Below, piece after piece: positions 29,596 to 64,000 of a stretch of DNA of 64,000 bases. Source of the stretch: Bacteroidota bacterium (GTDB lineage Bacteria; Bacteroidota; Bacteroidia; Chitinophagales; Saprospiraceae). The stretch lies in assembly GCA_030147525.1 (NCBI GenBank), contig JASBVF010000002.1:186001-250000 (forward strand), written 5' to 3'. Both the position numbers and the translations under genes were made by a program. The number at the start of each line of letters is the position of its first letter. Within the stretch, counting starts at the first letter, position 1. The notes beneath the pieces were generated by a model that was not told the DNA's origin, did not search any database, and saw only the letters and a program-made list of their open reading frames with translations.

Positions 29596-29967
29596 ATGCC
29601 CTACGAGTATTCTTTTGAAAAACTGGATGCCTGGAAAAAAGCCAAGGAGCTGGTGGTTCTGACTTATAAAATAACTGCCGGATATCCACCGGAAGAACGA
29701 TTTGGACTTACATTGCAAATGAGGAAAGCTGCCGTTTCCACCGCTTCAAATTTATCTGAGGGAAGCGGACGAACTACATCTGCAGACAAAGCAAGACTTT
29801 CGGAGATAGCTTTCGGAAGCCTGTTGGAGTTACTCAATCAGTACATCCTTTCAAAAGAGTTAGGCTACATTACTGAACAAGCGCTGAGCGAAATAAGGCC
29901 ATTGGTTGATGATACCGCTATCAGGATTAATAATTTGCGAAAATCCCAATTGAAAGGAGGGAGGTAA
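29596..29967 (+). CDS. Four-helix-bundle protein, 23S rRNA intervening-sequence (IVP/S23) family
   Basis: A 123-aa, all-helical protein. FEKLDAWKKAKELVVLTYKIT opens helix 1, FGLTLQMRKAAVSTASNLSEGSGR is the family signature, and the last two helices carry SLLELLNQYILSKELGYI and the C-terminal Arg-Ile-Asn-Asn-Leu. Proteins of this family were first seen in intervening sequences inside 23S rRNA genes and also occur freely in Bacteroidota genomes; they resemble the Avd accessory protein of diversity-generating retroelements. Their cellular role is not settled, and no reverse transcriptase or variable repeat is visible here. It is bracketed by inverted repeats and splits an otherwise metabolic gene set, so it may be a recently inserted cassette. 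Confidence 0.88.
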   Translation: MPYEYSFEKLDAWKKAKELVVLTYKITAGYPPEERFGLTLQMRKAAVSTASNLSEGSGRTTSADKARLSEIAFGSLLELLNQYILSKELGYITEQALSEIRPLVDDTAIRINNLRKSQLKGGR

Positions 29968-49052: not shown

Positions 49053-51077
49053 TTATTTGGCTACCACTTCCACAGGCTCGGAAATGGTCATGTTTCCATC
49101 TTTGTAGTAGGTGCGTAATTGATACTTATAGCTCTTTTCCGTCTCTAAATTGGCGTCGGTATATTCTGATTGATCGATCAATAAACCGGTCATCGGTAAA
49201 AACCGGCCATTGTCCACTTTTCTGTACAGCATACTGCCTTCAAGCAGGGTCGCAGACTCCTGTCTCCAGGTGAGGGTAGCGGCTTTTTTGCGTTTGTTAT
49301 AAGCAGCCTTCAGCTTTCCGGCCACAAGGTCTTCGCCATGACTTGGGCTGGTACTTACGGTATAGCGGTTCGAAATTTCAGATATGTTACCGGTGTAATC
49401 TTCAGCGGTTAACTGATAGTAATAACTCATTCCAGCCTGAAGGCCAGTATCCATAAACTGTGTAATACCCGGCAACAGCAGTTCCCCGCCAATTGGCACC
49501 CACCTGGTAGTGTCCAGGTCAGAACTGCGGTAGAGGTGGTAGCCTTTCAGTTCATCATCAATGCTAGGCAGCCAGGTCAACCGGGCCGTATCGTTTTTAA
49601 TTTCGACGCTGATGAGGGTTGGGGCAATGGGAGCAATGACATCCGGCATGATGGCGCTGACGGTTTCGGAGCGTTCGCTCAGGTTGCCATACACATCGAT
49701 AGCAGCTACTTTGTAGAAATATTTGTTGCGGGCTTCCCGAGGCAAAGAATCCAAAAAAGAGTTGCCCATAATCGAGCCGCCGGAGGCAAATATGAAAGGA
49801 GCACCCGGATTATTTGCCACAGAGCGATAGACGACATAGCCAAACAAATCCGGTTCCGCCTGCTCATCCCAGCGGATTTCGATAGCGCCCTCATGCGGAA
49901 TGGCCACTACCCCGGCAGGCACAGCAGGCGGGATTACATCGTTGACGGTCAAGCCCATTTTTGTGGAAGCCGAACGAGAGCCACGAGTGTTGATTGCCTC
50001 AACGTAAAAGAAACGGTCGCCCCAGTTCTCATCCACTACTTTGTAATCAAAGGTGGTCTGGCTGGCAGACAGGGTGGCATCATTGGTTTTTTTGAAAACA
50101 CCTTCAATGGAGTCGCTGACAAAAACATCATAGCCGATGATGTTTTCACTATCGGATGCCGCCCAACTAACCAGCACATCACGGGGGCCGGTGCGCACGG
50201 TCTCCAAATCCGAAGGCGGAGACGGCGGAGTTCGGTCAATGATTTCGATCTCAAAAGGCCGGGAAGCCTGGCTCTCCCTTCCAAAAAAATCAATGCCTCT
50301 CAGTTCGTAGGTATATTTTTTTCCAATGACATGATCGCCCTTTTTATAAAAATATGCAGGATAAACCAGCTTCCCTTCCGCATTGGTACTCATCGAAGGA
50401 ATAGCAGGGTTGTCATTGATTTTTCGGCTTTGCTGCCCTTCTTCCTTTCTGTAAATATTGATGGCAAAGTAGCGGGTCTCCTCCGGTGTCCAGGACACGT
50501 TCACCATCGTATCTATTTTTTCATCTACAAACACCCTGGCTCCTTGAGGCGGAGCGATGGGTTCATGGGCAGTAGCTGTTGTCGCTGCCGAAATTCCGAC
50601 CAAAAGCTCCTTTCCCTTTTCCAATTTGGTTACTTTATAGCGGTAAGCCTGGCCACTCATCACCGTTCCATCCTGGTAGAAAAGCCCTAAATATTTGGCA
50701 AAATCATTCAGCTCAACCAGCTTCCTGCTCAATAGCAGCAGGGTGAACGGATCAGCTTCTGACAAGTCGTTGTTCCGGATATATTCTTCCAAAAAAAGGA
50801 TGGCGTCATCTCTGTCAGCCGGATTTACCTCCAAAGTGGCCATTTTTTTAACAGGCGCAGCGTTGAGTAATGTCCATGCAGTCTCGCCATCCAGCTGCCG
50901 ATAAACCTGGAAGCCTTCCCCGGCTCCGAATTCAGGAATTATCCATTTGAGTAAAATGGTGCTGCCTGACTCATCATTACCGGCAAATAACTGCCCGATA
51001 TTATTTTCCTGTGCGCCGGCGTTAAGCTGCAGAAGCATCAAGCACCCAACCCATATCGTCGATTTTATGCTATTCAT
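49053..51077 (-). CDS. Secreted fibronectin type III repeat protein
   Basis: A 674-aa protein with a signal peptide ending at NAGAQ (about 23). It then has about six fibronectin type III domains, visible as repeated W-x-x-P/SxxxxIxGYxVYR and YYYxVxAxDxxGNxSExS motifs (for example IIGYDVFVSD, LFGYVVYRS, LKGYHLYRS). No T9SS sorting domain and no lipobox is visible, and the last residues are VEVVAK, so it may stay in the periplasm or attach to a partner. It is 21 bp behind the TANFOR gene and 43 bp ahead of the S74 fibre gene; FN3 proteins beside TANFOR proteins are a pattern I recognise in Bacteroidota, and the pair may act together. Confidence 0.83.
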   Translation of the reverse strand: MNSIKSTIWVGCLMLLQLNAGAQENNIGQLFAGNDESGSTILLKWIIPEFGAGEGFQVYRQLDGETAWTLLNAAPVKKMATLEVNPADRDDAILFLEEYIRNNDLSEADPFTLLLLSRKLVELNDFAKYLGLFYQDGTVMSGQAYRYKVTKLEKGKELLVGISAATTATAHEPIAPPQGARVFVDEKIDTMVNVSWTPEETRYFAINIYRKEEGQQSRKINDNPAIPSMSTNAEGKLVYPAYFYKKGDHVIGKKYTYELRGIDFFGRESQASRPFEIEIIDRTPPSPPSDLETVRTGPRDVLVSWAASDSENIIGYDVFVSDSIEGVFKKTNDATLSASQTTFDYKVVDENWGDRFFYVEAINTRGSRSASTKMGLTVNDVIPPAVPAGVVAIPHEGAIEIRWDEQAEPDLFGYVVYRSVANNPGAPFIFASGGSIMGNSFLDSLPREARNKYFYKVAAIDVYGNLSERSETVSAIMPDVIAPIAPTLISVEIKNDTARLTWLPSIDDELKGYHLYRSSDLDTTRWVPIGGELLLPGITQFMDTGLQAGMSYYYQLTAEDYTGNISEISNRYTVSTSPSHGEDLVAGKLKAAYNKRKKAATLTWRQESATLLEGSMLYRKVDNGRFLPMTGLLIDQSEYTDANLETEKSYKYQLRTYYKDGNMTISEPVEVVAK

Positions 51078-51098
51078 ACTGTCTTTTTTTGAAAAACT

Positions 51099-54000
51099 TT
51101 AAATGATTTTTTCCTTAAAAGGAAAGGAAAATGCAGCCCTGATGACGCCAAACAAGACAGCCTCACCGCCCAGACTTCCGGCCAGTTCATTTCTTGGGAA
51201 AGTGGCTATGAGTTCACCCCCGAGGTATAAATGCAATGCGTTGATATTTCCAAAAGGACATAACATACCTGAGAAATTGACACCGATATCCACGCCTATC
51301 CCGACCAGGATGCCGGCCCGTGTCAGTTCCAGCTCAGGTTCAACCGTGACGTCGGCAATGGCGACCATAGCCGCATAGGCATTGACGTACCCGTAGAAAG
51401 TGCAGACTTCATTTCCATATCTATCCGTTTGAGCAAAGGCCGCCAGAACCAATCCCATTCCTGCTCCAAGTTTAAGCGAATTAGGGTCCTTTTGGTGCAA
51501 CTCAAACCAGCCGATACCGCCCCAGCCGGCCGGACAGGTAACCACGAAAATTGGGAATTTCTGATTTCCAATTTCCAGATCAACCTTGCCGGGTGATGCC
51601 TGAAAGTGGATCTTACCCTGCCCGCAAAGCCCCTTACGTGGCTTCGGCGGCGGGCCAATGGCAGCGATAGCCTGCGCCTGAAAATCAGCAATAAATGTCT
51701 TCGTCTTTTCCGTGTAGGTGATACAGCCTTTCCCTTTCACAAATGAGCCATCGATGGTCGGCGGGTGAGGCGCATTGCCCATACCCACATCCACCCGGAG
51801 CAGGAATTGCCCAAAACTGCCCTGCCCGCCATTCATTTCGAGGACACCTTTGAACATGGTGGCCATTCCATCCTTGGAATACAATACGGCAGCTGCCTCA
51901 GGTGACAATGGAGGATCTCCCGGAGCAGGCACCAATGTATTCTCTGCCCGCACCTTCAGCATCATTCCAAAATCTATGGAGTTGTCCACCCGGTAATTCG
52001 TGATTTCGGAAGGTGAAATCTTGTTGATCCAGTTGGGCACTGCCGGTGCTGCGTGGATATTGATTAATGAGTCCGGCCAATCAATTGGGAAGAAGTTGGG
52101 CAACGGCCACATACACTCAGGCCCCCAACAAACGCCTGGCAACTCCTTGATTATCTGACACCAATCCTTGTCAGGATAGGAGTTAAAAATGTAAACCCAA
52201 TTAATGGTGTCGGGCGGTATCAGGCCTGTAACCATCGTGTCCCATTCTGCAAGGGTGAGAATGTGCCGCTCGTCAACCACAAAGGGTTTGGTTGGTTTCT
52301 GGGCCTGGCTTTGTTTATCAATACGCTTCAGTAAGTCTCTTTGTGTCCCCTTCGACATTTTGCATGGATCAGGAGGGAGATTGGGAGGGAAAGAAGGCAG
52401 GTTGCACAACCTTTCCTCGTAGTGCTCTATCTGCTTCAACATTGCATTCACGATATGCGGGCACCATTCGTTCGGGAACAGCAGTTCCAGGTGTGCGAAG
52501 GTTTGGATACTATCGTGTTTCAGCCGGTTCCAGGTTGCCGCCGGGATTTGGGGAACTTCCCTTTTCATCAATTCCCAATCAGGCTCGGGCAGTGCCCGCA
52601 AAGAACTTTGGAACGCTTCTGGGTCCAATTCCCGCCATTGGCACAGGAATTCAGATAAGTTGTTGGATTCGGCAATCATTTTTAATTTCTGACAGGTCGT
52701 CAAAAATTTCCAAATCTTTTCCGGGTCGATGTTTTCGGGCGTGACGCCGCCCAGTTGGACGAGCGACTTCATGTCTTTTCCGCATTCCTTTTCGACATCG
52801 TGGCTCATATTCCAGTACACCCGGCCGCCAATTTCCACCACATTGAAATTTCCGAAGATAATCCGCTTTGTCGGTACGGTAGTGGGTGGCATAGCACCTG
52901 ATGTTTGTTTTGCCATCGAACTGCCACCGAGGGCCTCTTTCACAGTTCCTAATTTGTCAAAATCAGATTTATTGGCCTGGTAGGTCAACTCGAACAATCC
53001 ATAATGAACGTCATCCTTGGAGCCAATCACCATCTTTGTAGCAATGCCGTATCGTATCGGCCTCTTTATTTCCGCAGTTGCCATACCCATAAAAACATTG
53101 CCCCAAACCGGGTCGTCCGTCTTGTACAGCAATCCACCTTTCAGCACCCAGATGGCATTTGCTTCAGCTAATTTCAGGGCAGCAGCAGCTCCCACACTTG
53201 CACCGGTAGAAGCACCTATTCCTGCGCCTTCCTCTTCATTACCTGTTCCTTCCACTGACACCCCTTCATTCTCACCATAAGAAGCAACGTGTATTGTATC
53301 GGCAGCCAACAAGGCGCCAATTCCGGCTCCGGCTCCGGCGCCCACTCCGGCGCCCAACAATCCAAGCCCTGCACTTTTCGGCGTAATCGGATAGCTCATG
53401 TAAACCGGAATGAACAAGGCGATTTTGCCGCCTTTCAACTCCTTTTTCGCTCCTTCGCTATAGTTACCCCAATATTTATTGTGAACATATTTAGCAGTTG
53501 GCACCCAGGCCGGGTCGTTCTCTTCTCCTTTCGGAATACGCTTGTCATCTGTGTAAAATTGGGCCGTCGGAGCCGCTGCTGAAGTAGGGTCAACAATGGC
53601 CATTTTTTCATCGCCCAACACCATATGTGTGATAAAATTGACGGCATAGGTATCGCCAAAGAACCCGGCCGCAATTCCAAAAATTGTAATTTCAAACTGG
53701 TTGTCAAATTTGCCGACCACATTAGTCAAGCCCTTCGCTCCTCCCGGAGTTCTGAAGCCAATTTCCCTGCTGCCCCAGATCTTAAACTCGGTAACATTGG
53801 TGAGATGAATCCCTAATGCTTCCCACTGTATGTCGATGACCAAATCCAGCCTTTCATTGTCTTTGAAAACCGCTTGTTTTACCGTCAGTTCCAGCCTTAA
53901 CTCTCTGGAGCTTTGCCTGAGAACGACTTCTTTGTTAACCAGGTCGTCATCCAGAAAACTCGCCTGCAAACCATTGTTGTCAAACGGAACAGCATAGGTA

Positions 54001-56348
54001 AACTCTTCATCAGGGTTCAGGAATGGAATTAAAACGAAGCCTTTCACGTGACAGCCGGAAACATTATTGTCTTCCAGCTTAATCTTCATCTCCCGAATGT
54101 TACCTTCGAAAGTATTGAAAGCAGCGGCAGGCCCGGTTGATCCGGTGAATGCTTTCACAATATCCATATCCACCCCAAACCGGTCAATCCAGGCATAAAA
54201 ACTATTGCCGGCCAAAGCCTCGAAATTATAAGCTTGCGCCTGCGCCAAAACGATTTGGTTGCTGCCATCAAATGTCGTTGGAAAATGGACGTTGAAGTTG
54301 GTGAAATAAATTCCTTTCCATGCTGTGTCAGCTATTTTCTCGGGTGACTGATCTTCCGAAAGGTCGAAGATGGCAGCTGCGGCATCCAATTGTATCTGGG
54401 TATTATTCACCAGTTTTATATTCGGATCGGCCTCCATTCCGGTTTGCGTGAAATAAAAAGGATTATCTGCCCCGGTGAATTTGTAGGACATCCGATTGCC
54501 GCTCATGTCCTTGACTTCGGTAATCGTATACACCTCGCCATCGAGCGTAAGGCTCAGTATGCTATTGAAAACACTGAAATTGGAAGCGGAATTCACACTG
54601 GACGCATACTCAATTCTAAAGCCATACGGGTCCAACAGATCAAAACTTGCCGCCTCGACGCCTATTTCATAATCAATGATTTTCAGCCGGTTGTACAGTA
54701 CGTCATCTTCCACGGATTCGACCACTGGCGAACCTCCTCCGGTTGCATGAGGAAATTGCCAGCGCAGTTTTCCCCGCAATTTCAAGTCATCTTTTTCTAC
54801 TATGACATGCGTCGCATGAAAATTTGCAACTCCATAATTATCCATATTGTCCACATCGCCGGCCGGGTTCCCACTGTTGTCAAGATGTACCAGGAAGTTA
54901 TTCAGCGGTTCGGTAATACTGCCTGACATCAGTTGCCAGAAATCATCCAATGGTCCGACGATGATGTCCGTAAAATGCAGGGTCACTTCCTCGCCGTTCT
55001 CCCTGATTTTCATGGTGCCGATGCCTGATATTTTCTTCTGATTGTTGGCCACATCTTCGTGGCTGGTCAACGTAATGACTGTGATGATATTCCAGTCAGG
55101 ATTACCGGCTTTGAAGCGCTCCACCGCTGGCGCCGACTTGAAAAATCGCTTTTCACTGACGGCGATTTCCTGCTCCGTACCGCTGTTGTCGGAGTATGCT
55201 TTCACCTCCCAGGCATAATGTCTCTCCGGAGGCAACGGGAATAAGTAGTTTGGCAAAACAAGCGCAGCATTCCCAGGTATGACGGGTGTCGTAACTTCGT
55301 ACCAAACCGGATTGAACTCGAGTGCAACTTCCCGGTCCTGGCCATCTAACATGAGGACGGCCTTGAGTTTGTAGTATACCTGCTGACCGGGAATGGCATT
55401 TTCGGGGCGGTTCCAGCGGAAAGTTAATTGCTGCACCGTACTCACCCGCTCGTCAAATGCCGGGCTAACGAGTGGCACGATTCCATCGGCATCCACGCCA
55501 TAGTAAAAAGTACAAACCGGTGTCAATCCATTGTTCTCAAATGTGGTGTTTCCCTGCAGATCCAGCACTTTGATCCGGTAGGCGTATTTTTTACCAATTT
55601 CCAATGGAAGTTGATCCGGACCATACAGAAAATTGGTGCCCATCACGGGTTCCGAATCCAGTATTTTGGTGGCCGTGCCGTTCATGGCATCGTTGGGGTT
55701 CATCCCCGGCGGCACCTCCACGATGCTTAATTCGTATAAAGTCTGGATCGTGAAATCGGCATTAACCTGCCATTGAAACAAAATATCCTGATTACCTGCA
55801 AAGACGGGAACTGTTGAACCACAGGCTGGAAACACCAGGTTTGGCGGGTAATTTTTGCGCAGCAATTTTGCACTGCACTGGTTGAAAGAGAGCGCTTTAT
55901 CCGGGCGCAGATAGTCGTACACCTGCACGCAAAAAGTATAAATCCCTTCCGGCAACCCCGACCCGCCTTCCTGCAAAGCCAGGGCAGATATTCCGCTCAC
56001 TAGCATATTGTTCGTATTGAGGTAGTTAGCCAGATCGCTGCCTGAAAACAGGTTGGCGCCGGGGGACAAAGTGATCAGTGGCGGCACGTAGCCGGGGTGC
56101 GTTACCAGGGAAATCCCATTGCCTGTGATGGAGATTTTCAGCCGGACATCGTAAACCGGCTCGTTGAAATCGTTCAGAAACAGATTCACCGACAACTGGT
56201 TGGAGCCCAATGCTGTGAAATCCGTCAGGTAGGTCGTAGCAGGCGGGTTGATTTGAACGGTGGCTGTGACCGGGAAGATCTGCGCCTTCGCAACAGTCCC
56301 CAACAAAAATAACACAGCCATCAATGTGAGTATGCGTTCGATCTTCAT
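51099..56348 (-). CDS. TANFOR-domain giant envelope protein
   Basis: A 1749-aa protein with signal peptide (cleavage after AKAQ, about 23). Residues about 24-175 match the TANFOR domain of Bacteroidota: FPVTATVQINPPATTYLTDF, then SVNLFLNDFNEPVYDVRLKI, GNGISLVTHPGY, SGSDLANYL and LPEGIYTFCVQVYDY. FN3-like strands follow (180-410), then a long unassigned beta-rich body. At about 1000-1065 two Gly/Ala-rich hydrophobic stretches form a glycine-zipper-like hairpin with an acidic turn. The C-terminus is beta-rich and ends in FSFPFKEKII; no T9SS sorting domain is seen. TANFOR proteins have no settled function. Here it lies between an outer-membrane barrel and an FN3 protein. Confidence 0.85.
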   Translation of the reverse strand: MKIERILTLMAVLFLLGTVAKAQIFPVTATVQINPPATTYLTDFTALGSNQLSVNLFLNDFNEPVYDVRLKISITGNGISLVTHPGYVPPLITLSPGANLFSGSDLANYLNTNNMLVSGISALALQEGGSGLPEGIYTFCVQVYDYLRPDKALSFNQCSAKLLRKNYPPNLVFPACGSTVPVFAGNQDILFQWQVNADFTIQTLYELSIVEVPPGMNPNDAMNGTATKILDSEPVMGTNFLYGPDQLPLEIGKKYAYRIKVLDLQGNTTFENNGLTPVCTFYYGVDADGIVPLVSPAFDERVSTVQQLTFRWNRPENAIPGQQVYYKLKAVLMLDGQDREVALEFNPVWYEVTTPVIPGNAALVLPNYLFPLPPERHYAWEVKAYSDNSGTEQEIAVSEKRFFKSAPAVERFKAGNPDWNIITVITLTSHEDVANNQKKISGIGTMKIRENGEEVTLHFTDIIVGPLDDFWQLMSGSITEPLNNFLVHLDNSGNPAGDVDNMDNYGVANFHATHVIVEKDDLKLRGKLRWQFPHATGGGSPVVESVEDDVLYNRLKIIDYEIGVEAASFDLLDPYGFRIEYASSVNSASNFSVFNSILSLTLDGEVYTITEVKDMSGNRMSYKFTGADNPFYFTQTGMEADPNIKLVNNTQIQLDAAAAIFDLSEDQSPEKIADTAWKGIYFTNFNVHFPTTFDGSNQIVLAQAQAYNFEALAGNSFYAWIDRFGVDMDIVKAFTGSTGPAAAFNTFEGNIREMKIKLEDNNVSGCHVKGFVLIPFLNPDEEFTYAVPFDNNGLQASFLDDDLVNKEVVLRQSSRELRLELTVKQAVFKDNERLDLVIDIQWEALGIHLTNVTEFKIWGSREIGFRTPGGAKGLTNVVGKFDNQFEITIFGIAAGFFGDTYAVNFITHMVLGDEKMAIVDPTSAAAPTAQFYTDDKRIPKGEENDPAWVPTAKYVHNKYWGNYSEGAKKELKGGKIALFIPVYMSYPITPKSAGLGLLGAGVGAGAGAGIGALLAADTIHVASYGENEGVSVEGTGNEEEGAGIGASTGASVGAAAALKLAEANAIWVLKGGLLYKTDDPVWGNVFMGMATAEIKRPIRYGIATKMVIGSKDDVHYGLFELTYQANKSDFDKLGTVKEALGGSSMAKQTSGAMPPTTVPTKRIIFGNFNVVEIGGRVYWNMSHDVEKECGKDMKSLVQLGGVTPENIDPEKIWKFLTTCQKLKMIAESNNLSEFLCQWRELDPEAFQSSLRALPEPDWELMKREVPQIPAATWNRLKHDSIQTFAHLELLFPNEWCPHIVNAMLKQIEHYEERLCNLPSFPPNLPPDPCKMSKGTQRDLLKRIDKQSQAQKPTKPFVVDERHILTLAEWDTMVTGLIPPDTINWVYIFNSYPDKDWCQIIKELPGVCWGPECMWPLPNFFPIDWPDSLINIHAAPAVPNWINKISPSEITNYRVDNSIDFGMMLKVRAENTLVPAPGDPPLSPEAAAVLYSKDGMATMFKGVLEMNGGQGSFGQFLLRVDVGMGNAPHPPTIDGSFVKGKGCITYTEKTKTFIADFQAQAIAAIGPPPKPRKGLCGQGKIHFQASPGKVDLEIGNQKFPIFVVTCPAGWGGIGWFELHQKDPNSLKLGAGMGLVLAAFAQTDRYGNEVCTFYGYVNAYAAMVAIADVTVEPELELTRAGILVGIGVDIGVNFSGMLCPFGNINALHLYLGGELIATFPRNELAGSLGGEAVLFGVIRAAFSFPFKEKII

Positions 56349-56375
56349 AGGTAATTTTCTTTTTAAAACAGTTGC

Positions 56376-58178
56376 TTAAAAACTGAACTGATACCCCATC
56401 AGCCCCTGGATTTCGGAGTAGGATTTATCACTATTGATGTAGTCCGCTTTGTATAAATGACTGAGGGTGAAATTGATGCGGTGATGTTTCATGACCTGGT
56501 AGTTCAGCGAAAAACGGTTTTGCAACACGCCGAAACTGCCCGACCCATTCAACAAACTGTTGCGGTAGGTGATGAAATACCGGGCCCGAAGTTTCTTCTC
56601 CAAAAACGACCGGTTCACGCCGATGCCTGGCCCTACGACGGTGGTTTCGTTGCCCTCCGAGATGCTGTGCGTGACGTTCAGCGAGCCGTTCAGGCCGGTA
56701 TTGACTTCCTTCAGAAAAATGTTGTAAAACACCCCTGCATTGTAAAAATCCGTGTTCTGGTCCGTGATGTTATACTCGTCACGGGCGTTGGCGTTCTGAT
56801 AGCTCAGGTTCAGGGAAAGGGATTGTTTTTTTTCGGCTGCGCCAAAACTGTAGTTCGTCACGACGCTGTAGCTGGTGGAAACCTGAAACAAATTCAGTGA
56901 ATCCGACAGCTCCTCTTTCGTCACCAAAAGGGAAGAGGAGTAGTTCGAATAGCTGGCGTTGACGTTCAACTGGTCGGTGATGCTCTGGCTGTAATTCAGC
57001 GAGCCGATGACCCGCCTCGAGCGGTTGTTGAGTTTGTCGTCGAGGTTGTTGCGTTGAAAACCGACGCTGCCGCCGACCATAATTTTGCCTTCTTTCAGGC
57101 TGGCATTGGTGTTGAAGGTGATGTCTTCCAGGTCATTTTGAAAATAGTAGGAACCCAGCGAGATGTAATCCGGCGCAATGCGATTGTACTTCAGGCCGAT
57201 GTTGTAGTTGGAAAACTGATACTCCAAAGTCGTTTGGATGCTCTGGTTCATTTGGGTGGAAATTTTGGGGGTAAACAAACCGCCGAGCCGGCCATAAATC
57301 CCGGTGTTTTCATCATTGGCCGTTTCACTCCTGCGGTCACGGGTAAAGGCGCTGCTGGCCCAGTCGGCTTTCAAAGTCAGAGATTCCCACAATTTATATT
57401 GGCCTGAAATGCCGAGTACCAGGTTGTCAACCGGCTTCACCGGATCATCGCCGAAAGGCACTTCGATACTGCTCTGCACGTCGTAGCCCCGGAACAGGAT
57501 GAAATCGAGGTAATTCGCCGCCTGTTTTTTACCAACCACGCCCAATTTCAAACCGTAACCCATGCGGCGGAAAGAGGGTATTGCCTCCCGGTCGATCACA
57601 TCGACAGGTTCGACGGCTCGCCGAAGCCGGCCGTACATGGCACTCACCCGGAGGTCAAAAAAGCGGGATTTGGTGGGCGGCGTCAGTTCGATACCGGCGC
57701 CGAGGAAGGTGTGGCTGTTGAGCGTCAGCGGAGAGAAAAACATGTTGCGGTAGCCGAGATGGCCCTTCGCCCATTTGTACTGTGGGCTGACGCCAAACTG
57801 GTTGAAAGGCTGTAAAAAATTAGCTTCAAGCTGACTGAAATTTCCGTTGATGGGGCAGTCGATGCCGAAAAGGCGGGGATTCAGATTGCCGTTCAGCAGG
57901 TAAGAATATTGGTCCCGGCGATTGGCGATTCCGAAAGCATCGTAGTAGCCAAGGGTAAGGCCGAAGGAGCCGGATACTTGAATGGGGTTTTTGATCCGTG
58001 CCTCGATGTCTTCACCCAATTCTTCGATGGTTTGGCCATGCAAAACGAAAACGGCAAGCCCTAACATCACGGTTAAAACGATTCGGTACCGGAACGGGAA
58101 AGATGGCGAAAAGAGTCCCTCGATTGGCAGTAGCAATAGGATATGCTTCTGCAGAGCTTTGCAGTTTCGTCGTTTCAT
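56376..58178 (-). CDS. Outer-membrane beta-barrel protein, unassigned family
   Basis: A 600-aa protein. The predicted start gives a 48-residue leader; the hydrophobic signal core (IVLTVMLGLAVFVLHG, cleavage before QTIEEL) is internal to it, so the true start may be a little later. From about residue 60 it consists of alternating amphipathic strands with aromatic ends (LGISGQYKLWESLTLKADW, TTLEYQFSNYNIGLKYN, VNASYSNYSSSLL), and the last residue is Phe in LMGYQFSF, the usual recognition signal for outer-membrane barrel insertion. I do not recognise a named family. As the first gene of the packed minus-strand set (27 bp before the TANFOR gene), it may be the outer-membrane platform for the others. 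Confidence 0.75.
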   Translation of the reverse strand: MKRRNCKALQKHILLLLPIEGLFSPSFPFRYRIVLTVMLGLAVFVLHGQTIEELGEDIEARIKNPIQVSGSFGLTLGYYDAFGIANRRDQYSYLLNGNLNPRLFGIDCPINGNFSQLEANFLQPFNQFGVSPQYKWAKGHLGYRNMFFSPLTLNSHTFLGAGIELTPPTKSRFFDLRVSAMYGRLRRAVEPVDVIDREAIPSFRRMGYGLKLGVVGKKQAANYLDFILFRGYDVQSSIEVPFGDDPVKPVDNLVLGISGQYKLWESLTLKADWASSAFTRDRRSETANDENTGIYGRLGGLFTPKISTQMNQSIQTTLEYQFSNYNIGLKYNRIAPDYISLGSYYFQNDLEDITFNTNASLKEGKIMVGGSVGFQRNNLDDKLNNRSRRVIGSLNYSQSITDQLNVNASYSNYSSSLLVTKEELSDSLNLFQVSTSYSVVTNYSFGAAEKKQSLSLNLSYQNANARDEYNITDQNTDFYNAGVFYNIFLKEVNTGLNGSLNVTHSISEGNETTVVGPGIGVNRSFLEKKLRARYFITYRNSLLNGSGSFGVLQNRFSLNYQVMKHHRINFTLSHLYKADYINSDKSYSEIQGLMGYQFSF

Positions 58179-58609
58179 GAAAAAGAGTTTTACAATAACT
58201 ATTACCTAAAAGGGGGCGTCAGATAGTTAGAAAAAAGCGGTGTATCTAAGATTTTGCGTGGAGCGTACATTGTTGAAAGGCTGACAAGTGGAGCGTTAAT
58301 GGTTGATCTTCAGCAACTTAAGCTGAACCAAGGCTAAAAAAGCACCATGAATAATGCTATGAATTTACGATAAATCCTGTTAAGGTTCGCTTTTTTTACA
58401 ATACCGTAAAATCTTCTTTGTCGAATTAGTCGTTTCCCAAAAGGAAAAGTCGCCGAATATTCTATTTTTTTAAAAAAAAATTCCTCTCTCCGTTCGTAAG
58501 GCATTGGAATTTTTATGAAAATTGCCTGCAGGGCATAAGTACCCCCATTTTTACGCAGGCAATAGATTCAACCGGTCCGGTGAATGGCATTTCCGGCGCA
58601 TCAGGAAAC
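58179..58609. other. Divergent intergenic region with leader hairpin
   Basis: This 431-bp AT-rich gap separates the minus-strand envelope set from the plus-strand CHAT gene, so promoters for both must lie here; I see no clear TAnnTTTG box. An 8-bp stem TTGCCTGC (58522-58529) with GCAGGCAA (58555-58562), 25-nt loop, sits 48 bp before the CHAT start and may be part of its 5' leader. Confidence 0.4.
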
Positions 58610-59986
58610 ATGATCAAAATCCAAAGAAACGGGACAATCTTTTTGATCCTTTTTTGCCACCTCGTGGCAAGCGGGCAAACCTTGATGCGGGACACTGCCG
58701 AAGCCCGGCAATATTTTGAAAAGGGTAAAAAACTGCTGAGCACCTCCCGGTACGACAGTGCGTTTTTCTACCTGAATCAATGTGAAAAACTACTCGAAAA
58801 GCACCTCAGGGCCAACGATCCTTTCCGGCTGCAATCCCGGATAACACTGGCTGCCAGCCGGCAATACCTGGGCGACTTCAATCAGGCACTAAAAATCTAC
58901 CGGTCCATTCTGGAAGACATCGACGAGCAGAAAAATGAAGACGATTATGTGAAGGTGCAAAATAATATCGCCTCGATTTACAAAGACCTTTTCGACACGC
59001 AGAATGCCCAGATCACCTTTGAATGGATCCTGCAAAACCGGATAAAAAAATACGGCGAAAAGCACCCTGAGGTGGTGAGTGCCTACGTCAAACTGGGCGC
59101 TAACTGCAACGATTTTAAAGACAGTCTGCATTACGAGAAGGGCCTGGCCTACTTTTCCAAAGCATTGGCAATTCAAAGACAACTCGAACCCTCTGAAGGC
59201 TTCGAGCATTACCGTATTCTGGAAGAGATCTCGGAAATCTACCGCTCGCAGGGTCATTACCAAAAGGCCATTCCGATTTTGAAAAAAGTCTTGGCCTACC
59301 GGCAAAAACACCTTTCGCCTAATGATCCTTACATCGGCGACGCACATTTCTACCTGGCTAAAAATTATATCCTTGCCGAAAACTGGGAAAAAGCATTCCT
59401 GCACCTGGATGCAGATTTGAGGATTCTCCGGGAAACTTACGGGGCCAACCACCCCTACTTCGCTGATGACTTATTAGACAAGGCAAAGATTTTCCGCAAG
59501 CAGGGAAATTTCAAAAAGGCGCTGGAACTGATAGCCGAAATTACCCACCTGCTGATTCCCGGATTTTCACCTGACGGCAATGAGAGCCCAAAGGAAGCAC
59601 TGCTGAACGCCGGCTATTTTCAACAAAAAAAACTCATTGGCGTATTTGAAGAAAAAGCCAACATTCTGACCTCCGGGCCCGCTGGTTTTAACGATAAAAA
59701 AACAGCTCTGGAGTCACTCGATATGGCCATTCAACTCATCGAAGAGACCCGGCAGGTTTACCAGGAGCAGGGGTCAAAGATTACGCTGTACGCCACCTAT
59801 CGTCCTGTTTTTGAACATGCGCTAAAGCTTTCGCTCGAATTGTGGGAACAAACCCACGACCCCAGCTACAGTGGACAGGCTTTCACCATCATGGAAAAGA
59901 GTAAAGTGGCTACTTTACGAGATGCCATCCATGCAAAATCCGCCATTGAGTTTTCCAACATCCCCAGCCGTTTTTCCGAAAAATAG
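58610..59986 (+). CDS. TPR part of a TPR-CHAT protease (N-terminal fragment, frameshifted)
   Basis: 458 aa from the ATG at 58610, chosen because the signal peptide starts there (IFLILFCHLVASGQ); the ATG at 58580 adds ten residues. About seven tetratricopeptide repeats follow (about 30-330; e.g. YQKAIPILKKVLAYRQKHL), then the helical linker typical of TPR-CHAT proteins (AFTIMEKSKVATLRDAIHAKSAIEFSNIP). The frame stops at TAG 59984-59986 in mid-linker. One more A in the A5 run (59979-59983) would join it to the CHAT part through FSEKIALLKRQIGN, giving a protein of about 925 aa. So this is half of one gene broken by a frameshift, by a sequence error, or joined by slippage. TPRs would face the periplasm. 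Confidence 0.85.
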   Translation: MIKIQRNGTIFLILFCHLVASGQTLMRDTAEARQYFEKGKKLLSTSRYDSAFFYLNQCEKLLEKHLRANDPFRLQSRITLAASRQYLGDFNQALKIYRSILEDIDEQKNEDDYVKVQNNIASIYKDLFDTQNAQITFEWILQNRIKKYGEKHPEVVSAYVKLGANCNDFKDSLHYEKGLAYFSKALAIQRQLEPSEGFEHYRILEEISEIYRSQGHYQKAIPILKKVLAYRQKHLSPNDPYIGDAHFYLAKNYILAENWEKAFLHLDADLRILRETYGANHPYFADDLLDKAKIFRKQGNFKKALELIAEITHLLIPGFSPDGNESPKEALLNAGYFQQKKLIGVFEEKANILTSGPAGFNDKKTALESLDMAIQLIEETRQVYQEQGSKITLYATYRPVFEHALKLSLELWEQTHDPSYSGQAFTIMEKSKVATLRDAIHAKSAIEFSNIPSRFSEK

Positions 59987-59988
59987 CC

Positions 59989-61389
59989 TTGCTGAAAAGG
60001 CAAATCGGTAACATCTCCAGCCAGATTTATCAACTGGAAAAAGATAGCACCGGCAACCGTCAAAGTCTGATCAAGGCAAAAAATGAACTGTTTGAATGCC
60101 GGAAATCCTACGAAAAACTCATCGATACGCTTGAAAAGACCTACCCGGATTATTATGACCTGAAATACAACACTTCGATCATTTCATTCCAGCAGGCACA
60201 GGCATTGCTGGGAGCGATGGATGCCCATTTGCTGGAATATTTTGCAGGTGATCAGCAGCTGTTCGTGATCCATCTTTCAAAAACCGGCTTTGAATACCGA
60301 ATGACGCCGCTTCCTTCCGGTTTTGAAAAATACACTTCCGGTTTTATTCAGCTGCTGAAAAATACACAACTGGCAAATGAAGAAGGCAACAGCAAGGCTC
60401 TGTTCAAACAATTCTGCAGCCAATCCTATCAACTCCACCAATGGCTGATCGCCGGTATTTCACTGCCGGAAGGTCAGCCCGTCATTTTCATTCCGGATGG
60501 GGTTTTGAATTTATTACCATTCGGTGTGCTCATCAACTCCCTGCCCGGCGACATAAGCGAGGTGGATTATGCCGGCCTGTCATACTTGCTTAAACGCCAC
60601 CCCATCAGTTACGAAAATGCTTTTACCCTTTACCTCCAGAAACGAAAAAAAACGAAAACTACAGCTGTCCGGCTCGCCGCATTTGCCCCCTCCTACCCCT
60701 CCAACAATGATAAAATGAGGGCGTCAGCATCAGTTTTCTCTTCACTGAAACATACAGAGCAGGAAGCCAGGACCATTGCCCGGTTATTTCATGGAGTCAC
60801 TTTCTTGCGGCAAACCGCAACGGCTGACCAATTCAAAAAAGCAGCCCCTGAATATAACATTCTCCACCTGGCTTTACACGCTTTCACCGACGATGAAGAC
60901 CCTACTTATTCGGGATTGATTTTCTCCGAAAACACAACAGACACAGGCAGCAATACCCTCCACGCTTACGAGCTGAGCAACATGAGTTTGAATGCCGATC
61001 TCGTCGTACTGAGCGCCTGCAACACTGGCGGCGGAAAACTGGCAAAAGGCGAGGGAGTCATGAGTTTGGCCCGGGCTTTCAGACATGCAAATTGTCCGAA
61101 CATCGTCATGAGCCTCTGGCAGGCCGACGATGAAGCCACCGGAAAAATCATGGCAGATTTCTACCGGGAATTAAAAAACGGGCTTCGCAAGGATGTCGCT
61201 TTACAACAGGCAAAACTGAATTACCTGGCTACGAACCGCAAATGCTTCCCTTATTACTGGTCAGAATTCGTATTGCTGGGTGGTAGCGACCCAATTTCCC
61301 GGCCATCCTCCGGCCTGTGGTTGAAATGGGTGATGGGCTTGCTGGTTTTAACGGGTGTTCTTTGGTGGCTGAAAATCAGATTTTTTTAA
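59989..61389 (+). CDS. CHAT (caspase-like) protease domain, C-terminal part, with membrane anchor
   Basis: Continues the TPR fragment in another frame; its only start here is a TTG with no ribosome-binding site, which supports a split gene. Helical linker first (about 1-60), then the CHAT domain (about 75-420). The catalytic dyad is complete: H297 in HLALHAF and C344 in SACNTGGG, with EGVMSLARAFRHANCPNIVMSLW after it. The protein ends in one membrane helix (about 445-463). With the signal peptide of the N-terminal part, the protease would be periplasmic and anchored in the inner membrane. It ends 7 bp from the convergent anti-sigma-like gene. CHAT proteases cut specific partner proteins; the anti-sigma-like neighbour is the obvious candidate, by inference. 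Confidence 0.85.
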   Translation: MLKRQIGNISSQIYQLEKDSTGNRQSLIKAKNELFECRKSYEKLIDTLEKTYPDYYDLKYNTSIISFQQAQALLGAMDAHLLEYFAGDQQLFVIHLSKTGFEYRMTPLPSGFEKYTSGFIQLLKNTQLANEEGNSKALFKQFCSQSYQLHQWLIAGISLPEGQPVIFIPDGVLNLLPFGVLINSLPGDISEVDYAGLSYLLKRHPISYENAFTLYLQKRKKTKTTAVRLAAFAPSYPSNNDKMRASASVFSSLKHTEQEARTIARLFHGVTFLRQTATADQFKKAAPEYNILHLALHAFTDDEDPTYSGLIFSENTTDTGSNTLHAYELSNMSLNADLVVLSACNTGGGKLAKGEGVMSLARAFRHANCPNIVMSLWQADDEATGKIMADFYRELKNGLRKDVALQQAKLNYLATNRKCFPYYWSEFVLLGGSDPISRPSSGLWLKWVMGLLVLTGVLWWLKIRFF

Positions 61390-61396
61390 AAACCAG

Positions 61397-62140
61397 TCAA
61401 AGAGATTTCAAAATTTCCTGCGCCTCCCCGTGTTTAAAATGCCGCTGATCGCTGGCTATCTGTTCCAACATCGGCCGGGCTTCCGCCACGTTATTCATTT
61501 TTAGCAAAGCTAAAGCCCGGTACCATGCCGCATCCTGCTGGTAAGAACTTTCCTTGCTCATGTTTTCAAAAACAGCAATCGCCTGACCGCTCTCATTTTT
61601 CATCAGGTAGCTCAGCCCAAGGAATAACTTTCCACGTTCGGTGTACGGAAAACCAGGCTGCTCGACGGCAGGCGCAAGCAGTTCGATTGCTTTCGCAAAA
61701 TCCTTGTTTGAGTATGCCGCCATCGCCGACTGCCACAGTAACTCCTGCGGACTATTGCTGGCACTGCCGTCTCGTTCATTGACCGGAGCAGGCAATTCAA
61801 AGTAAGTAGCAAATAATTCTTCCCCCGAACGCTGAGCCCCGGTTTTCGAAAAGAAATACCAGGCGGCCGCCAGGATCAAAAAGGCAGCAGCTACCTGGAG
61901 CACACGTTTTATCGGGAAGATTTTCAGCCTTTTTTGTTCATGCTGCGCCAGCGCTTCGCCGGCTTTTTTCATCAATGCAGCTTTCCCCGCCGCCCGGATG
62001 AGCGTCATATCCTCCTGGTACAACTCAAACTCCCGCCGGAGTTCGGCATCACTTTCCAGGTGTTGCCGGAAATCCTCCCGGGATATTTCTCCCTGGTGGT
62101 ATTGGTCGATGAGGTCATGTACTTTACTATTAGAGTTCAT
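61397..62140 (-). CDS. Anti-sigma-factor-like membrane protein with periplasmic TPR
   Basis: A 247-aa protein of unnamed type. Residues 1-75 are a charged cytoplasmic helical region (VHDLIDQYHQGEISREDFRQHLESDAELRREFELYQ) like the N-terminus of Bacteroidota anti-sigma factors; residues about 80-98 are one membrane helix; residues about 135-247 carry two to three TPR-like repeats (AYSNKDFAKAIELLAPAV, YLMKNESGQAIAVFENM, ALLKMNNVAEARPMLEQI). It follows the sigma factor gene on the same strand after 161 bp. Holding the sigma factor at the membrane is inferred from layout and order; no zinc-finger (HxxxCxxC) motif is present. Confidence 0.72.
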   Translation of the reverse strand: MNSNSKVHDLIDQYHQGEISREDFRQHLESDAELRREFELYQEDMTLIRAAGKAALMKKAGEALAQHEQKRLKIFPIKRVLQVAAAFLILAAAWYFFSKTGAQRSGEELFATYFELPAPVNERDGSASNSPQELLWQSAMAAYSNKDFAKAIELLAPAVEQPGFPYTERGKLFLGLSYLMKNESGQAIAVFENMSKESSYQQDAAWYRALALLKMNNVAEARPMLEQIASDQRHFKHGEAQEILKSL

Positions 62141-62301
62141 TTTTTAAACACTTTAATTTTAATTAAAGCAGTGTGTTTATCGGGTTGGCGGCTCAGGCGC
62201 AAAGCAGGTTAACTACCCGCCGCTTTTTTATCTGAAAATGGCGAGATCTTCCTCAACTAAAAACCAGGCTACCTGCCCGGCTGCAAATTCGCTGACACCT
62301 T

Positions 62302-62871
62302 TCAGGATGACTTTCTCAGCTTGCGCAGCCGTTGCAAGCATTTATACTTGCGGTCTTTCACCTGAACACTCCCTCCCAGCCCTGTACGCTCTGCGATGTC
62401 AGCCATGCTGTAGCCCCAGAACCCCCAGTCCAGGAGGATTTGCCGGCAAGGTTCCCCCAGCTGATCGAGCAAATTGAGAAGCCCGGTGAAATCTTCGCCG
62501 GTTTCGATTTTCTTTTGGATATCAGATGCCTGGTCGGCAAGCTCAGGCAGGTCACTAGGATAGCTCAATGGCTTAGTCGTATTTTTCCTGGACAGGTCGA
62601 CACATTTGAAGTAAAAGATTTTATAAAGATAAGTTGAAAGCTTGCTTTCACCCCTGAAGATTCCCTGTTTCGCCTGTTCCATCAGATCCAGAATAGCATC
62701 CGTAAAAACATCCAGCGCAGCCTCTTTTACCAAGCCTGTTTTTTTTACCATGACCGGAACCAAATGGACGTAGGTGTCTATCAAATGCGAAGTCACCCGC
62801 TCCCTTGAATTTCCACCTTCGGATAACGCAGCGATAATCTGCTCGTCCGTCCAACAACTGGATGTTTTCAT
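62302..62871 (-). CDS. ECF-type RNA polymerase sigma factor
   Basis: A 189-aa sigma-70 family protein. Region 2 is recognisable in VKEAALDVFTDAILDLMEQ and FRGESKLSTYLYKIFYFKCVDLSRK (about 47-95), with the GxSxxxTYLYxIxxxxxxDxxR signature of region 2.3-2.4. Region 4 (about 125-185) has LGEPCRQILLDWGFWGYSMADIAERTG, the helix-turn-helix that reads the -35 element, then KCLQRLRKL. It is followed by an anti-sigma-like membrane gene. The start at 62871 gives a normal length; no other start is needed. It likely directs RNA polymerase to a small regulon, perhaps including its own operon. Confidence 0.88.
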   Translation of the reverse strand: MKTSSCWTDEQIIAALSEGGNSRERVTSHLIDTYVHLVPVMVKKTGLVKEAALDVFTDAILDLMEQAKQGIFRGESKLSTYLYKIFYFKCVDLSRKNTTKPLSYPSDLPELADQASDIQKKIETGEDFTGLLNLLDQLGEPCRQILLDWGFWGYSMADIAERTGLGGSVQVKDRKYKCLQRLRKLRKSS

Positions 62872-62940
62872 GCTTTTACTTTAAAAAATCAACCTAAAAA
62901 TAGCCGGTCATCTTTCGCCAGGCAGTAAAGAAATAGGCTA

Positions 62941-62969
62941 CAAATGTATTGGAAATATTCTTTTAGAAA
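62941..62969 (-). promoter_or_regulatory. Candidate promoter of the sigma/anti-sigma genes
   Basis: On the minus strand TACATTTG (62948-62941) fits the TAnnTTTG -7 box; TTTC at 62969-62966 is a weak -33 element at slightly short spacing. The transcript leader would be about 60 nt. Confidence 0.4.
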
Positions 62970-63480
62970 CTATCCACCATTTTTCAAAAATTCAAACCAA
63001 CCTAAAACTCACTCAATTGGTCGATTTTCATAAATATGCCATGAGTTTCTTACCATTGCCGCAAATTCTGAGATAATGAAACACTTGTTTTCTCTCTGCT
63101 TCGCAACCTGATCTTCTCCTGCTTTCAGCATATTCACAAAATGAAAAAAACGGCAGTAGCGCTCAAGCCCCAAAACAGCCGACACCCTTGGTATAGTCTG
63201 GATTTCCGCCGGCACTTTCACCATGGGTAGCAACAACGAACAGGCCGAAACCGACGAACCAGCCACTCGAAAACGGTCCATGCGGGACGGATATTGGGTC
63301 TCCCGCCGCATGCGCAGCAGCATGGATTCGGGTTTGAGCCATACCGGGTTCAGGTGTGTGAAAAGTTCGAAAAGCAACTTTGAGTAAAATCCGGTCGCAT
63401 ATTCCAATAAAAACACCTACACAGTCCGGACTGCCAACTCGCAAACTCTTTCCGCAAGTCATCAACCGTGCAAACTCAGT
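62970..63480. other. Gene-free stretch
   Basis: About 500 bp between the sigma factor promoter and the glucanotransferase promoter. Frames that are open here show no recognisable domain, no signal peptide and unlikely composition. I see no RNA gene or strong repeat. Confidence 0.5.
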
Positions 63481-63484
63481 TTTG

Positions 63485-63492
63485 TAGCTTTG
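63485..63492 (+). promoter_or_regulatory. Candidate -7 promoter element of the glucanotransferase gene
   Basis: TAGCTTTG matches TAnnTTTG exactly, 66 bp before the start codon. No convincing -33 TTTG stands at the right distance. Confidence 0.4.
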
Positions 63493-63557
63493 CCCTGCTT
63501 TTAAAACGATGGGTGAAATATTGCCCTCATCACTAAACCTCAGACGATAAAGCATCT

Positions 63558-64000
63558 ATGAAAATTTCCTTCCACATCAATTACCGAACAGCCTGGGGAC
63601 AGCGGCTCGTCGTGACCGGCTCCGCACCTGAACTGGGCAACTGGGACCTGTCCAATGCATTGCGCCTCGAGCACGTCGGCAATGGCAACTGGGTTCAAAC
63701 GCTGGAACTGGACGACTCCGTCACTCAATTTGAATACAAATACGTCCTCACGGACGAATGGCTGAACGCACTGGACGAAGACTGGGGAGCCAATCGCAAG
63801 GTGACTGTTCAGAAACAGCTTTCCCAACGGGTTATTTTGAAAGATGCATGGCGGGCAAAGCTGCATCCTGAAAATGCGCTTTACACTTCCGCCTTCGAAG
63901 AAGTCATTTTCAAACCAAAAAAATACAAAACCAAAGCGCCGGGCAGTGCGAAAGAAAAGGCGGTCGTACAGTTTCAGATGCATGCGCCACGGGTGGAGCC
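63558..64000 (+). CDS. malQ: 4-alpha-glucanotransferase (CBM20-containing), 5' part
   Basis: The frame runs off the window after 147 codons. Residues about 1-105 are a CBM20 starch-binding domain: MKISFHINYRTAWGQRLVVTG, SAPELGNWD (the tryptophan that stacks on glucose), a GNWVQTLEL strand and FEYKYVLTDEW. A second domain begins near residue 135 (KAVVQFQMHAP), matching the two N-terminal CBM20 copies of Bacteroidota MalQ, which transfer glucan chains between maltodextrins. The enzyme core is outside the window, so another CBM20 protein cannot be excluded. No signal peptide, so cytoplasmic, which suits MalQ. Confidence 0.72.
   Translation, partial: MKISFHINYRTAWGQRLVVTGSAPELGNWDLSNALRLEHVGNGNWVQTLELDDSVTQFEYKYVLTDEWLNALDEDWGANRKVTVQKQLSQRVILKDAWRAKLHPENALYTSAFEEVIFKPKKYKTKAPGSAKEKAVVQFQMHAPRVE

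What the first reader, a model, noticed from the sequence alone, without database searches (positions are those of the whole stretch)
58610..62871. TPR-CHAT protease facing a membrane anti-sigma-like protein and an ECF sigma factor
Seen: a CHAT domain with intact His/Cys dyad, signal peptide, TPRs and C-terminal membrane anchor; 7 bp away, convergent, a TM protein with a cytoplasmic helical head and periplasmic TPRs; then an ECF sigma factor. Known: in type III-E CRISPR a TPR-CHAT protease cleaves Csx30, which controls a sigma factor; and ECF sigma factors are commonly freed by anti-sigma proteolysis. Inference: this is a CRISPR-independent protease-controlled sigma switch in which both TPR regions meet in the periplasm.
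Basis: partly seen in the sequence, partly recalled or inferred. Interest (0 to 1): 0.75.

Follow-up and report, generated by a model that had tools for sequence, protein, structure and literature searches.

The report
Protease-controlled sigma switch, one gene broken
Bacteria of this phylum often carry, side by side, a transcription factor, the membrane protein that probably holds it captive, and a cutting enzyme related to the one that separates our chromosomes; sequence patterns suggest the enzyme cuts the captor at one particular spot, although in this genome the enzyme's gene is interrupted.

Summary
The trio is real and conserved, but the window's CHAT gene is not intact: its TPR and CHAT halves lie in different frames, joined only by a -1 shift near 59979-59983; its nearest relatives have one open frame. 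The module (ECF sigma, membrane anti-sigma-like protein, periplasmic TPR-CHAT protein) recurs in several orders of Bacteroidota. In a sample chosen by similarity, 35 of 70 complete CHAT genes have a sigma/anti-sigma pair within 5 kb; 22 pairs abut tail to tail where chance gives about 0.03. The cytoplasmic head resembles solved anti-sigma domains; one relative fuses sigma and anti-sigma. Nearest known kin: Myxococcus DdvA, an anti-sigma fused to TPR-CHAT. New: the anti-sigma's periplasmic loop keeps an Arg (R123; 80 of 101), a candidate cut site, and a CHAT residue expected to bind it co-varies: Arg goes with Asp in 85 of 85 rows, Glu/Ala occurs only where Arg is replaced (17 of 27). That rests on 3-5 independent changes, not significant alone. 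Best reading: CHAT is a private site-1 protease that frees the sigma factor. Cleavage is unproven; 'both TPR regions meet' is not supported.

The parts
58610..59983 (+). TPR half of the TPR-CHAT protein (458 aa), with signal-peptide-like start 58610-58678
   Evidence: (PF13424 E 4.4e-26); frame ends at TAG 59984-59986
59979..59983 (+). run of five A where the reading frame shifts by -1 between the two halves
   Evidence: relatives are continuous here
59983..61389 (+). CHAT half (468 aa) with C-terminal hydrophobic anchor 61309-61380
   Evidence: (PF12770 E 7e-55)
60877..60879 (+). predicted catalytic His (H299 of the CHAT half)
   Evidence: invariant in the 47 CHATs of A2; H in 170 of 171 non-redundant CHATs
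61018..61020 (+). predicted catalytic Cys (C346 of the CHAT half)
   Evidence: invariant in the 47 CHATs of A2; C in 170 of 171, one alignment gap
61129..61131 (+). acidic residue D383 (W+4 in SLWxxxD), proposed S1-pocket residue
   Evidence: co-varies with the anti-sigma loop residue; D in 193 of 206 CHATs
61397..62140 (-). membrane anti-sigma-like TPR protein (247 aa)
61913..62140 (-). cytoplasmic three-helix head (residues 1-76)
   Evidence: AlphaFold2 helices 3-15, 21-30, 32-69; head family matches solved anti-sigma domains
61838..61912 (-). transmembrane helix (residues 77-101)
61772..61774 (-). R123 in the periplasmic loop, candidate P1 residue of the cut
   Evidence: R 80, K 12, M 4 of 101 rows; coil in the model
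61403..61750 (-). periplasmic TPR domain (residues 131-246)
   Evidence: best fold match YbgF TPR 2xev
62302..62871 (-). ECF sigma factor (189 aa)
   Evidence: TIGR02937 47.6 bits, cut-off 42.9

Best explanation
A three-part envelope-to-gene switch. The ECF sigma factor is held at the inner membrane by the head of the TM-TPR protein (anti-sigma). The TPR-CHAT protein is exported, anchored by its C-terminal helix, and faces the anti-sigma in the periplasm. On a signal (unknown, perhaps read by its TPR superhelix) the CHAT Cys/His centre cuts the anti-sigma after R123 in the loop between membrane and TPRs; D383 binds the Arg. This would be site-1 cleavage; a site-2 (M50) protease and cytoplasmic proteases would then release the sigma factor. 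Shown by calls: the genes, their conservation as a module, head similarity to anti-sigma domains, dyad conservation, the conserved loop residue and its covariation with W+4. Inferred: topology, binding, cleavage, signal, release. In this genome the CHAT gene is frameshifted, so this copy may be off, unless the shift is an assembly error, is recoded, or another CHAT acts in trans.
For: Linkage: 35 of 70 complete CHATs (sample picked by similarity to the window's CHAT) have a sigma/anti-sigma pair within 5 kb; 22 tail-to-tail pairs against 0.027 expected, 19 with the sigma gene; 13 more tail-to-tail trios with sigma in 79 named loci, two of them records already counted. Linkage survives rearrangement: of 63 trios 27 convergent, 28 divergent, 8 co-directional. 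Anti-sigma identity: NCBIfam antisigma matches 24 of 66 heads; solved heads 3hug_B E 0.0013 and DdvA 8rlz_A E 0.004; a sigma/anti-sigma single frame in L246; head and sigma diverge together, r 0.58. Protease: dyad invariant in 47 of 47; fold like separase, Csx29 and DdvA. Cut site: R123 and covariation, R/D 85, R/other 0, non-R/D 10, non-R/other 17 of 112 rows (the window's gene is in twice). Of 25 pairs fetched after the pattern was seen, 13 of 13 Arg had Asp and 11 of 12 non-Arg did not. M50 protease present.
Against: No cleavage or binding data; no complex model possible. Covariation rests on 3 (supported branches) to 5 independent changes, all agreeing, sign test p 0.25; Fisher 1.6e-13 ignores kinship. 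10 of 27 non-Arg rows keep Asp, so the code is loose. P1 calls of 4 rows were corrected by eye (L009, L233, L282, L140) and 5 non-genuine anti-sigma rows dropped. Ten anti-sigmas without a CHAT near keep R (5), K (3) or M (2) too. About half of sampled CHATs have no sigma pair near (35 of 70). The window's own head reaches no anti-sigma model alone, and a Nif11 protein scores like DdvA (E 0.0035). The window's CHAT is frameshifted.
Confidence: 0.7

Rival explanations
1. Output, not input: the CHAT gene is a target of the sigma factor (a secreted or periplasmic effector), and the anti-sigma is cut by some other protease.
For: 28 of 63 trios are divergent, suiting co-regulation; some divergent modules hold a secreted protein between sigma and CHAT: Thiol_cytolysin family in L104 and L120, subtilase with T9SS tail in L163.
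Against: Does not predict that the CHAT W+4 residue follows the anti-sigma loop residue, nor that the anti-sigma's periplasmic part diverges with the CHAT catalytic half. No shared promoter element was found upstream of sigma and CHAT genes (a weak test on two or three genomes).
Confidence: 0.15
2. Contact without cutting: TPR-CHAT works as a sensor that pulls on or shields the anti-sigma's TPR domain.
For: DdvA, as I recall its published abstract, has an incomplete His-Cys site; TPRs on both proteins.
Against: His and Cys are kept in 60 of 61 module CHATs, the last an alignment gap; a conserved basic loop residue is not expected.
Confidence: 0.1
3. The window's trio is a decaying copy: the frameshift is real and this CHAT is dead.
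For: -1 shift with TAG stop; very long intact frames nearby (5281, 2172, 2023 aa) speak against a high indel error rate; nine short or interrupted CHAT frames away from contig ends exist in the fetched loci, at various places; a second, intact trio exists in this genome (L009).
Against: Both halves keep recognisable function-bearing residues; reads were not available; single-base assembly error cannot be excluded. This rival concerns this copy, not the module.
Confidence: 0.5

Closest known systems
DdvA-DdvS of Myxococcus xanthus (PDB 8rot, 8rw5, 8rlz)
   Same: ECF sigma factor held by a membrane anti-sigma whose periplasmic part is TPR-CHAT; fold match to the window's CHAT relative E 1.7e-12; head profile matches the DdvA head. 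That DdvA is the cognate anti-sigma of DdvS, signal unknown: passages of PMC4374960; that DdvS drives an antiphage island: passages of PMC12288465. Autoproteolysis in trans before RseP is a proposal I recall from the 2024 abstract; the paper is not held.
   Different: Here anti-sigma and CHAT are two proteins (0 of 181 CHAT frames of 850 aa or more has a DdvA-like inner TM); dyad complete; own CHAT anchor at the C-terminus; conserved candidate P1 residue.
Type III-E CRISPR Craspase (Csx29 / Csx30 / CASP-sigma)
   Same: TPR-CHAT protease, cut inhibitor, ECF-like sigma (passages of PMC10028731); fold match Csx29 8eey E 7.3e-17; weak NCBIfam Csx29 match E 3.9e-7, 29 of 300 bits.
   Different: Here exported, no RNA guide; no direct-repeat array in 50000-64000; no Csx30 hit in the genome, though the control rang nowhere. 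Craspase cut sites L|D, M|K, A|S are not conserved (passages of PMC11106740).
ECF54 sigma factors
   Same: CHAT, subtilase and carboxypeptidase genes in their context, proteolytic control proposed (passage of PMC8999054).
   Different: Described there as lacking an anti-sigma; example from Geodermatophilus. Group membership could not be tested.
RseA-DegS-RseP / RsiW regulated proteolysis
   Same: Membrane anti-sigma destroyed stepwise from the periplasm (passage in PMC10028731).
   Different: Site-1 protease here would be a dedicated separase-like CHAT encoded beside its substrate, not DegS.
Separase
   Same: Caspase-like fold (9hn4 E 7.0e-17); cuts after Arg held by acidic residues, one in a helix after the catalytic strand (model paper PMC4626109, passages).
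   Different: Exported bacterial protein; that W+4 equals that acidic residue is inference from sequence position, not a structural alignment.

Membership tests
CHAT domain proteins (PF12770) | score over the curated cut-off with His-Cys dyad | tested here: met
   186.9 bits against 24; His and Cys present
ECF sigma factors (TIGR02937) | score over the curated cut-off | tested here: met
   47.6 bits against 42.9
Membrane anti-sigma factors | head recognised by an anti-sigma model | tested here: inconclusive
   Whole protein: LIMLP_03685 E 2.1e-5 but 23.9 of 200 bits. Head of the window alone: none; 24 of 66 relatives match NCBIfam antisigma at E 0.05 or less, 12 match zf-HC2
Membrane anti-sigma factors | encoded with, or fused to, its sigma factor | tested here: met
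   82 sigma/anti pairs in the fetched loci; one fused frame, L246
Membrane anti-sigma factors | binds and inhibits the sigma factor | not testable with these tools
   needs complex modelling or binding assay
DdvA family | anti-sigma head, TM, TPR and CHAT in one chain | tested here: not met
   two genes in the window; 0 of 181 CHAT frames with an inner TM at residues 55-170
Type III-E CRISPR (Craspase) | Csx29 over cut-off | tested here: not met
   29.3 of 300 bits
Type III-E CRISPR (Craspase) | Csx30, Cas7-11 and CRISPR array | tested here: inconclusive
   no Csx30 hit in G000, but the control rang nowhere; no array in 50000-64000; Cas7-11 not searched
ECF54 | ECF group assignment | not testable with these tools
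   no ECF group models at hand; the classification paper is not held

The most novel reading that the evidence does not exclude
Bacteroidota use a large family of private, separase-like site-1 proteases: each ECF sigma module brings its own exported CHAT protease, whose S1 pocket (Asp, Glu or Ala at W+4) is matched to the P1 residue (Arg, Lys or Met) in the periplasmic loop of its own anti-sigma, so that many parallel switches in one cell are kept apart partly by a cut-site code.
Probability: 0.45. Interest if true: 0.85.

Novelty: new variant of a known kind. Interest (0 to 1): 0.72.

Why it matters
Anti-sigma factors cut by dedicated neighbours would explain how Bacteroidota with many ECF factors keep signals apart, give the many unexplained TPR-CHAT genes (up to 23 matches a genome) a substrate, and place separase-like proteolysis in ordinary envelope signalling, not only in CRISPR defence. 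The predicted cut (R123-D124) and the predicted pocket residue (D383) make it directly testable with relatives that have an intact gene. In the held library, 'CHAT domain' with 'anti-sigma' occurs in one paper, the Csx29 one; 'CHAT domain' with 'ECF sigma' and 'tetratricopeptide' in the same one. Most subscription papers are not held, so this is no proof that the module is unpublished.

Tried and rejected
Programmed -1 frameshifting: the A5 site is no X XXY YYZ heptamer in frame, the nearest relatives are continuous there, and other interrupted CHATs break elsewhere; judged unlikely. Shared promoter motif upstream of sigma and CHAT genes: upstream regions of the window, L102 and L103 are not conserved; one pair (window sigma versus window CHAT) just exceeded 100 shuffles, 26 against 25, and was not followed. 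DdvA-like fusions in the sample: none. Defence-system models: nothing beyond a weak TPR match. Type III-E membership: Csx29 far below cut-off. TPR-to-TPR contact: not favoured. Smaller-scale tests: nearest-neighbour agreement between partner trees is low (10 of 63 for anti-sigma periplasmic part and CHAT, 19 of 63 for head and sigma). Promoters of the modules, sigma regulons and signals remain unknown.
Full report
WHAT IS THERE. On the + strand 58610-61389 lies a TPR-CHAT gene, followed 7 bases later, on the - strand, by a 247-aa TM protein (61397-62140) and an ECF sigma factor (62302-62871). It is not: the TPR half (458 aa) runs into TAG at 59984-59986, and the CHAT half continues in the -1 frame from 59983. 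The closest relatives, L102 (1054 aa) and L103 (1069 aa), align across the junction without a gap. The window contains much longer intact frames (5281 aa and others), so a high indel rate is unlikely, but an assembly error at this one place cannot be excluded.

THE MODULE IS CONSERVED. CHAT matches occur in 42 of 60 relatives, up to 23 a genome. I took 100 stretches around the best CHAT matches listed plus five of this genome's own, so the sample favours CHATs like the window's. Among 70 complete CHATs with at least 3 kb on both sides, 35 have a sigma/anti-sigma-like pair within 5 kb and 35 do not. 22 CHAT/anti-sigma-like pairs abut tail to tail, 19 with the sigma gene; from the numbers of both genes about 0.027 would abut by chance (20 of the loci had been picked by the anti-sigma). 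A scan of named genomes gave 79 further loci; 14 show the tail-to-tail pair, 13 with sigma, of which L234 and L258 repeat records already seen. They include Agaribacillus aureus (L206, L233 nearby), Aquimarina sp. AU58 (L263), Flavobacteriaceae and Bacteroidales MAGs. Over 63 non-redundant trios the arrangement is convergent in 27, divergent in 28 and co-directional in 8: the order changes, the linkage stays. This genome has a second, intact convergent trio (L009).

THE TM PROTEIN IS PROBABLY THE ANTI-SIGMA. AlphaFold2 gives a three-helix head, a TM helix and a TPR domain (pLDDT 93; TPR best match YbgF 2xev). The head family (66 sequences) matches NCBIfam antisigma in 24 members and Pfam zf-HC2 in 12; the window's own head matches neither. 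Its profile finds, among solved structures, 3hug_B (E 0.0013; by recall the mycobacterial anti-sigma RslA) and the DdvA head 8rlz_A (E 0.004), but also a Nif11 protein (E 0.0035). In a Saprospiraceae MAG (L246) sigma and anti-sigma form one 453-aa frame. Head and sigma diverge together (r 0.58; 0 of 999 permutations as high, also within genomes).

THE CHAT PROTEIN IS PROBABLY AN ACTIVE, EXPORTED PROTEASE. His and Cys are invariant in the 47 CHATs of alignment A2 and kept in 60 of 61 module CHATs and 109 of 110 others (the exceptions are an alignment gap and one Gln). A crude hydropathy rule finds both an N-terminal signal-like stretch and a C-terminal anchor in 46 of 61 module CHATs and 86 of 110 others. 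The AlphaFold2 model of L102 (pLDDT 89, pTM 0.85) resembles separase, Csx29 and DdvA.

A CANDIDATE CUT SITE. In 103 periplasmic parts aligned, R123 of the window protein is R in 80, K in 12, M in 4 and Q in 2 of 101 (3.19 bits), followed mostly by S, G, N or T; most neighbours in the loop carry 0.5 to 1.3 bits. It is coil in the model (residues 114-130), about 20 residues after the TM helix. Separase also cuts after Arg; a model study places two acidic residues at it, one in a helix after the catalytic strand (PMC4626109, passages). By position I equate that with W+4 in the CHAT motif SLWxxxD (D383 here); this is inference.

COVARIATION. In a first set of 77 CHATs with a neighbouring anti-sigma, P1 Arg had Asp at W+4 in 63 of 63; non-Arg had Asp in 9 and Glu in 5 (Fisher 1.0e-4). 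I then fetched more anti-sigmas, on purpose from Met- and Lys-type families. In the 25 new pairs, 13 of 13 Arg had Asp and 11 of 12 non-Arg had Glu or Ala (one search lists them; one of the 13, L417, lies about 7 kb from its anti-sigma, beyond the 5 kb rule, and was read because the rest of its family is Lys/Met with Glu/Ala). All together: 112 rows, R/D 85, R/other 0, K or M with D 10, K or M with E or A 17 (Fisher 1.6e-13); the window's gene is counted twice, so 84 distinct R/D. Five rows whose 'anti-sigma' did not align were left out, and four P1 calls were corrected by eye. On the CHAT tree W+4 changes about 5 times (3 on supported branches); P1 goes the same way in 2.9 of 3 and never the other way, but the sign test gives p 0.25. 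So the pattern is strong in number, consistent in direction, and thin in independent events.

AGAINST. No cleavage or binding was tested. Anti-sigmas without a CHAT near also keep R (5), K (3) or M (2) of ten. Ten of 27 non-Arg rows keep Asp.

MECHANISM AND PLACE AMONG KNOWN SYSTEMS. Best reading: CHAT cuts the anti-sigma at R123-D124 in the periplasm, an M50 protease (present in this genome, E 2.8e-54) finishes, and sigma is freed. It works like DegS-RseA and like Craspase-Csx30, and its nearest kin is DdvA-DdvS, where anti-sigma and TPR-CHAT are one chain. ECF54 has CHAT genes in its context without an anti-sigma (PMC8999054, passage). Hence a new variant of a known kind. For this window the switch is compromised by the frameshift.

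Noticed in passing
L104:3847-5658, L120:3747-5570, L163:4117-5697: In some divergent modules a secreted protein lies between sigma and CHAT genes: Thiol_cytolysin family in two, a subtilase with T9SS sorting tail in one.
   Followed up: partly
L246:13819-15180: One open frame joins an ECF sigma factor to the whole anti-sigma-like protein (453 aa).
   Followed up: partly
window 31568-47413 (-): A 5281-aa frame with SprB repeats, Ig_7 and PKD domains (first 4900 residues scanned), a giant surface protein.
   Followed up: no
window 58610-59983 against L102: The window's TPR half is 21% identical to its nearest relative while the CHAT half is 43%, as if the sensor half had been exchanged or evolves faster.
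   Followed up: no
L393, L394, L397, L398, L400, L401: An anti-sigma family with the loop motif DPGLPxxM(S/G) (variants occur), in L393, L397 and L398 followed co-directionally by CHAT.
   Followed up: partly
L132, L135, L136, L138, L141, L144-L146, L155: A CHAT gene without sigma pair in a recurring neighbourhood of four genes of about 240-300 aa in genus-mates, perhaps a different CHAT function.
   Followed up: no
window 29596-29967 (+): A 23S_rRNA_IVP family protein (E 4.6e-27) outside a ribosomal RNA context in the frames seen.
   Followed up: no
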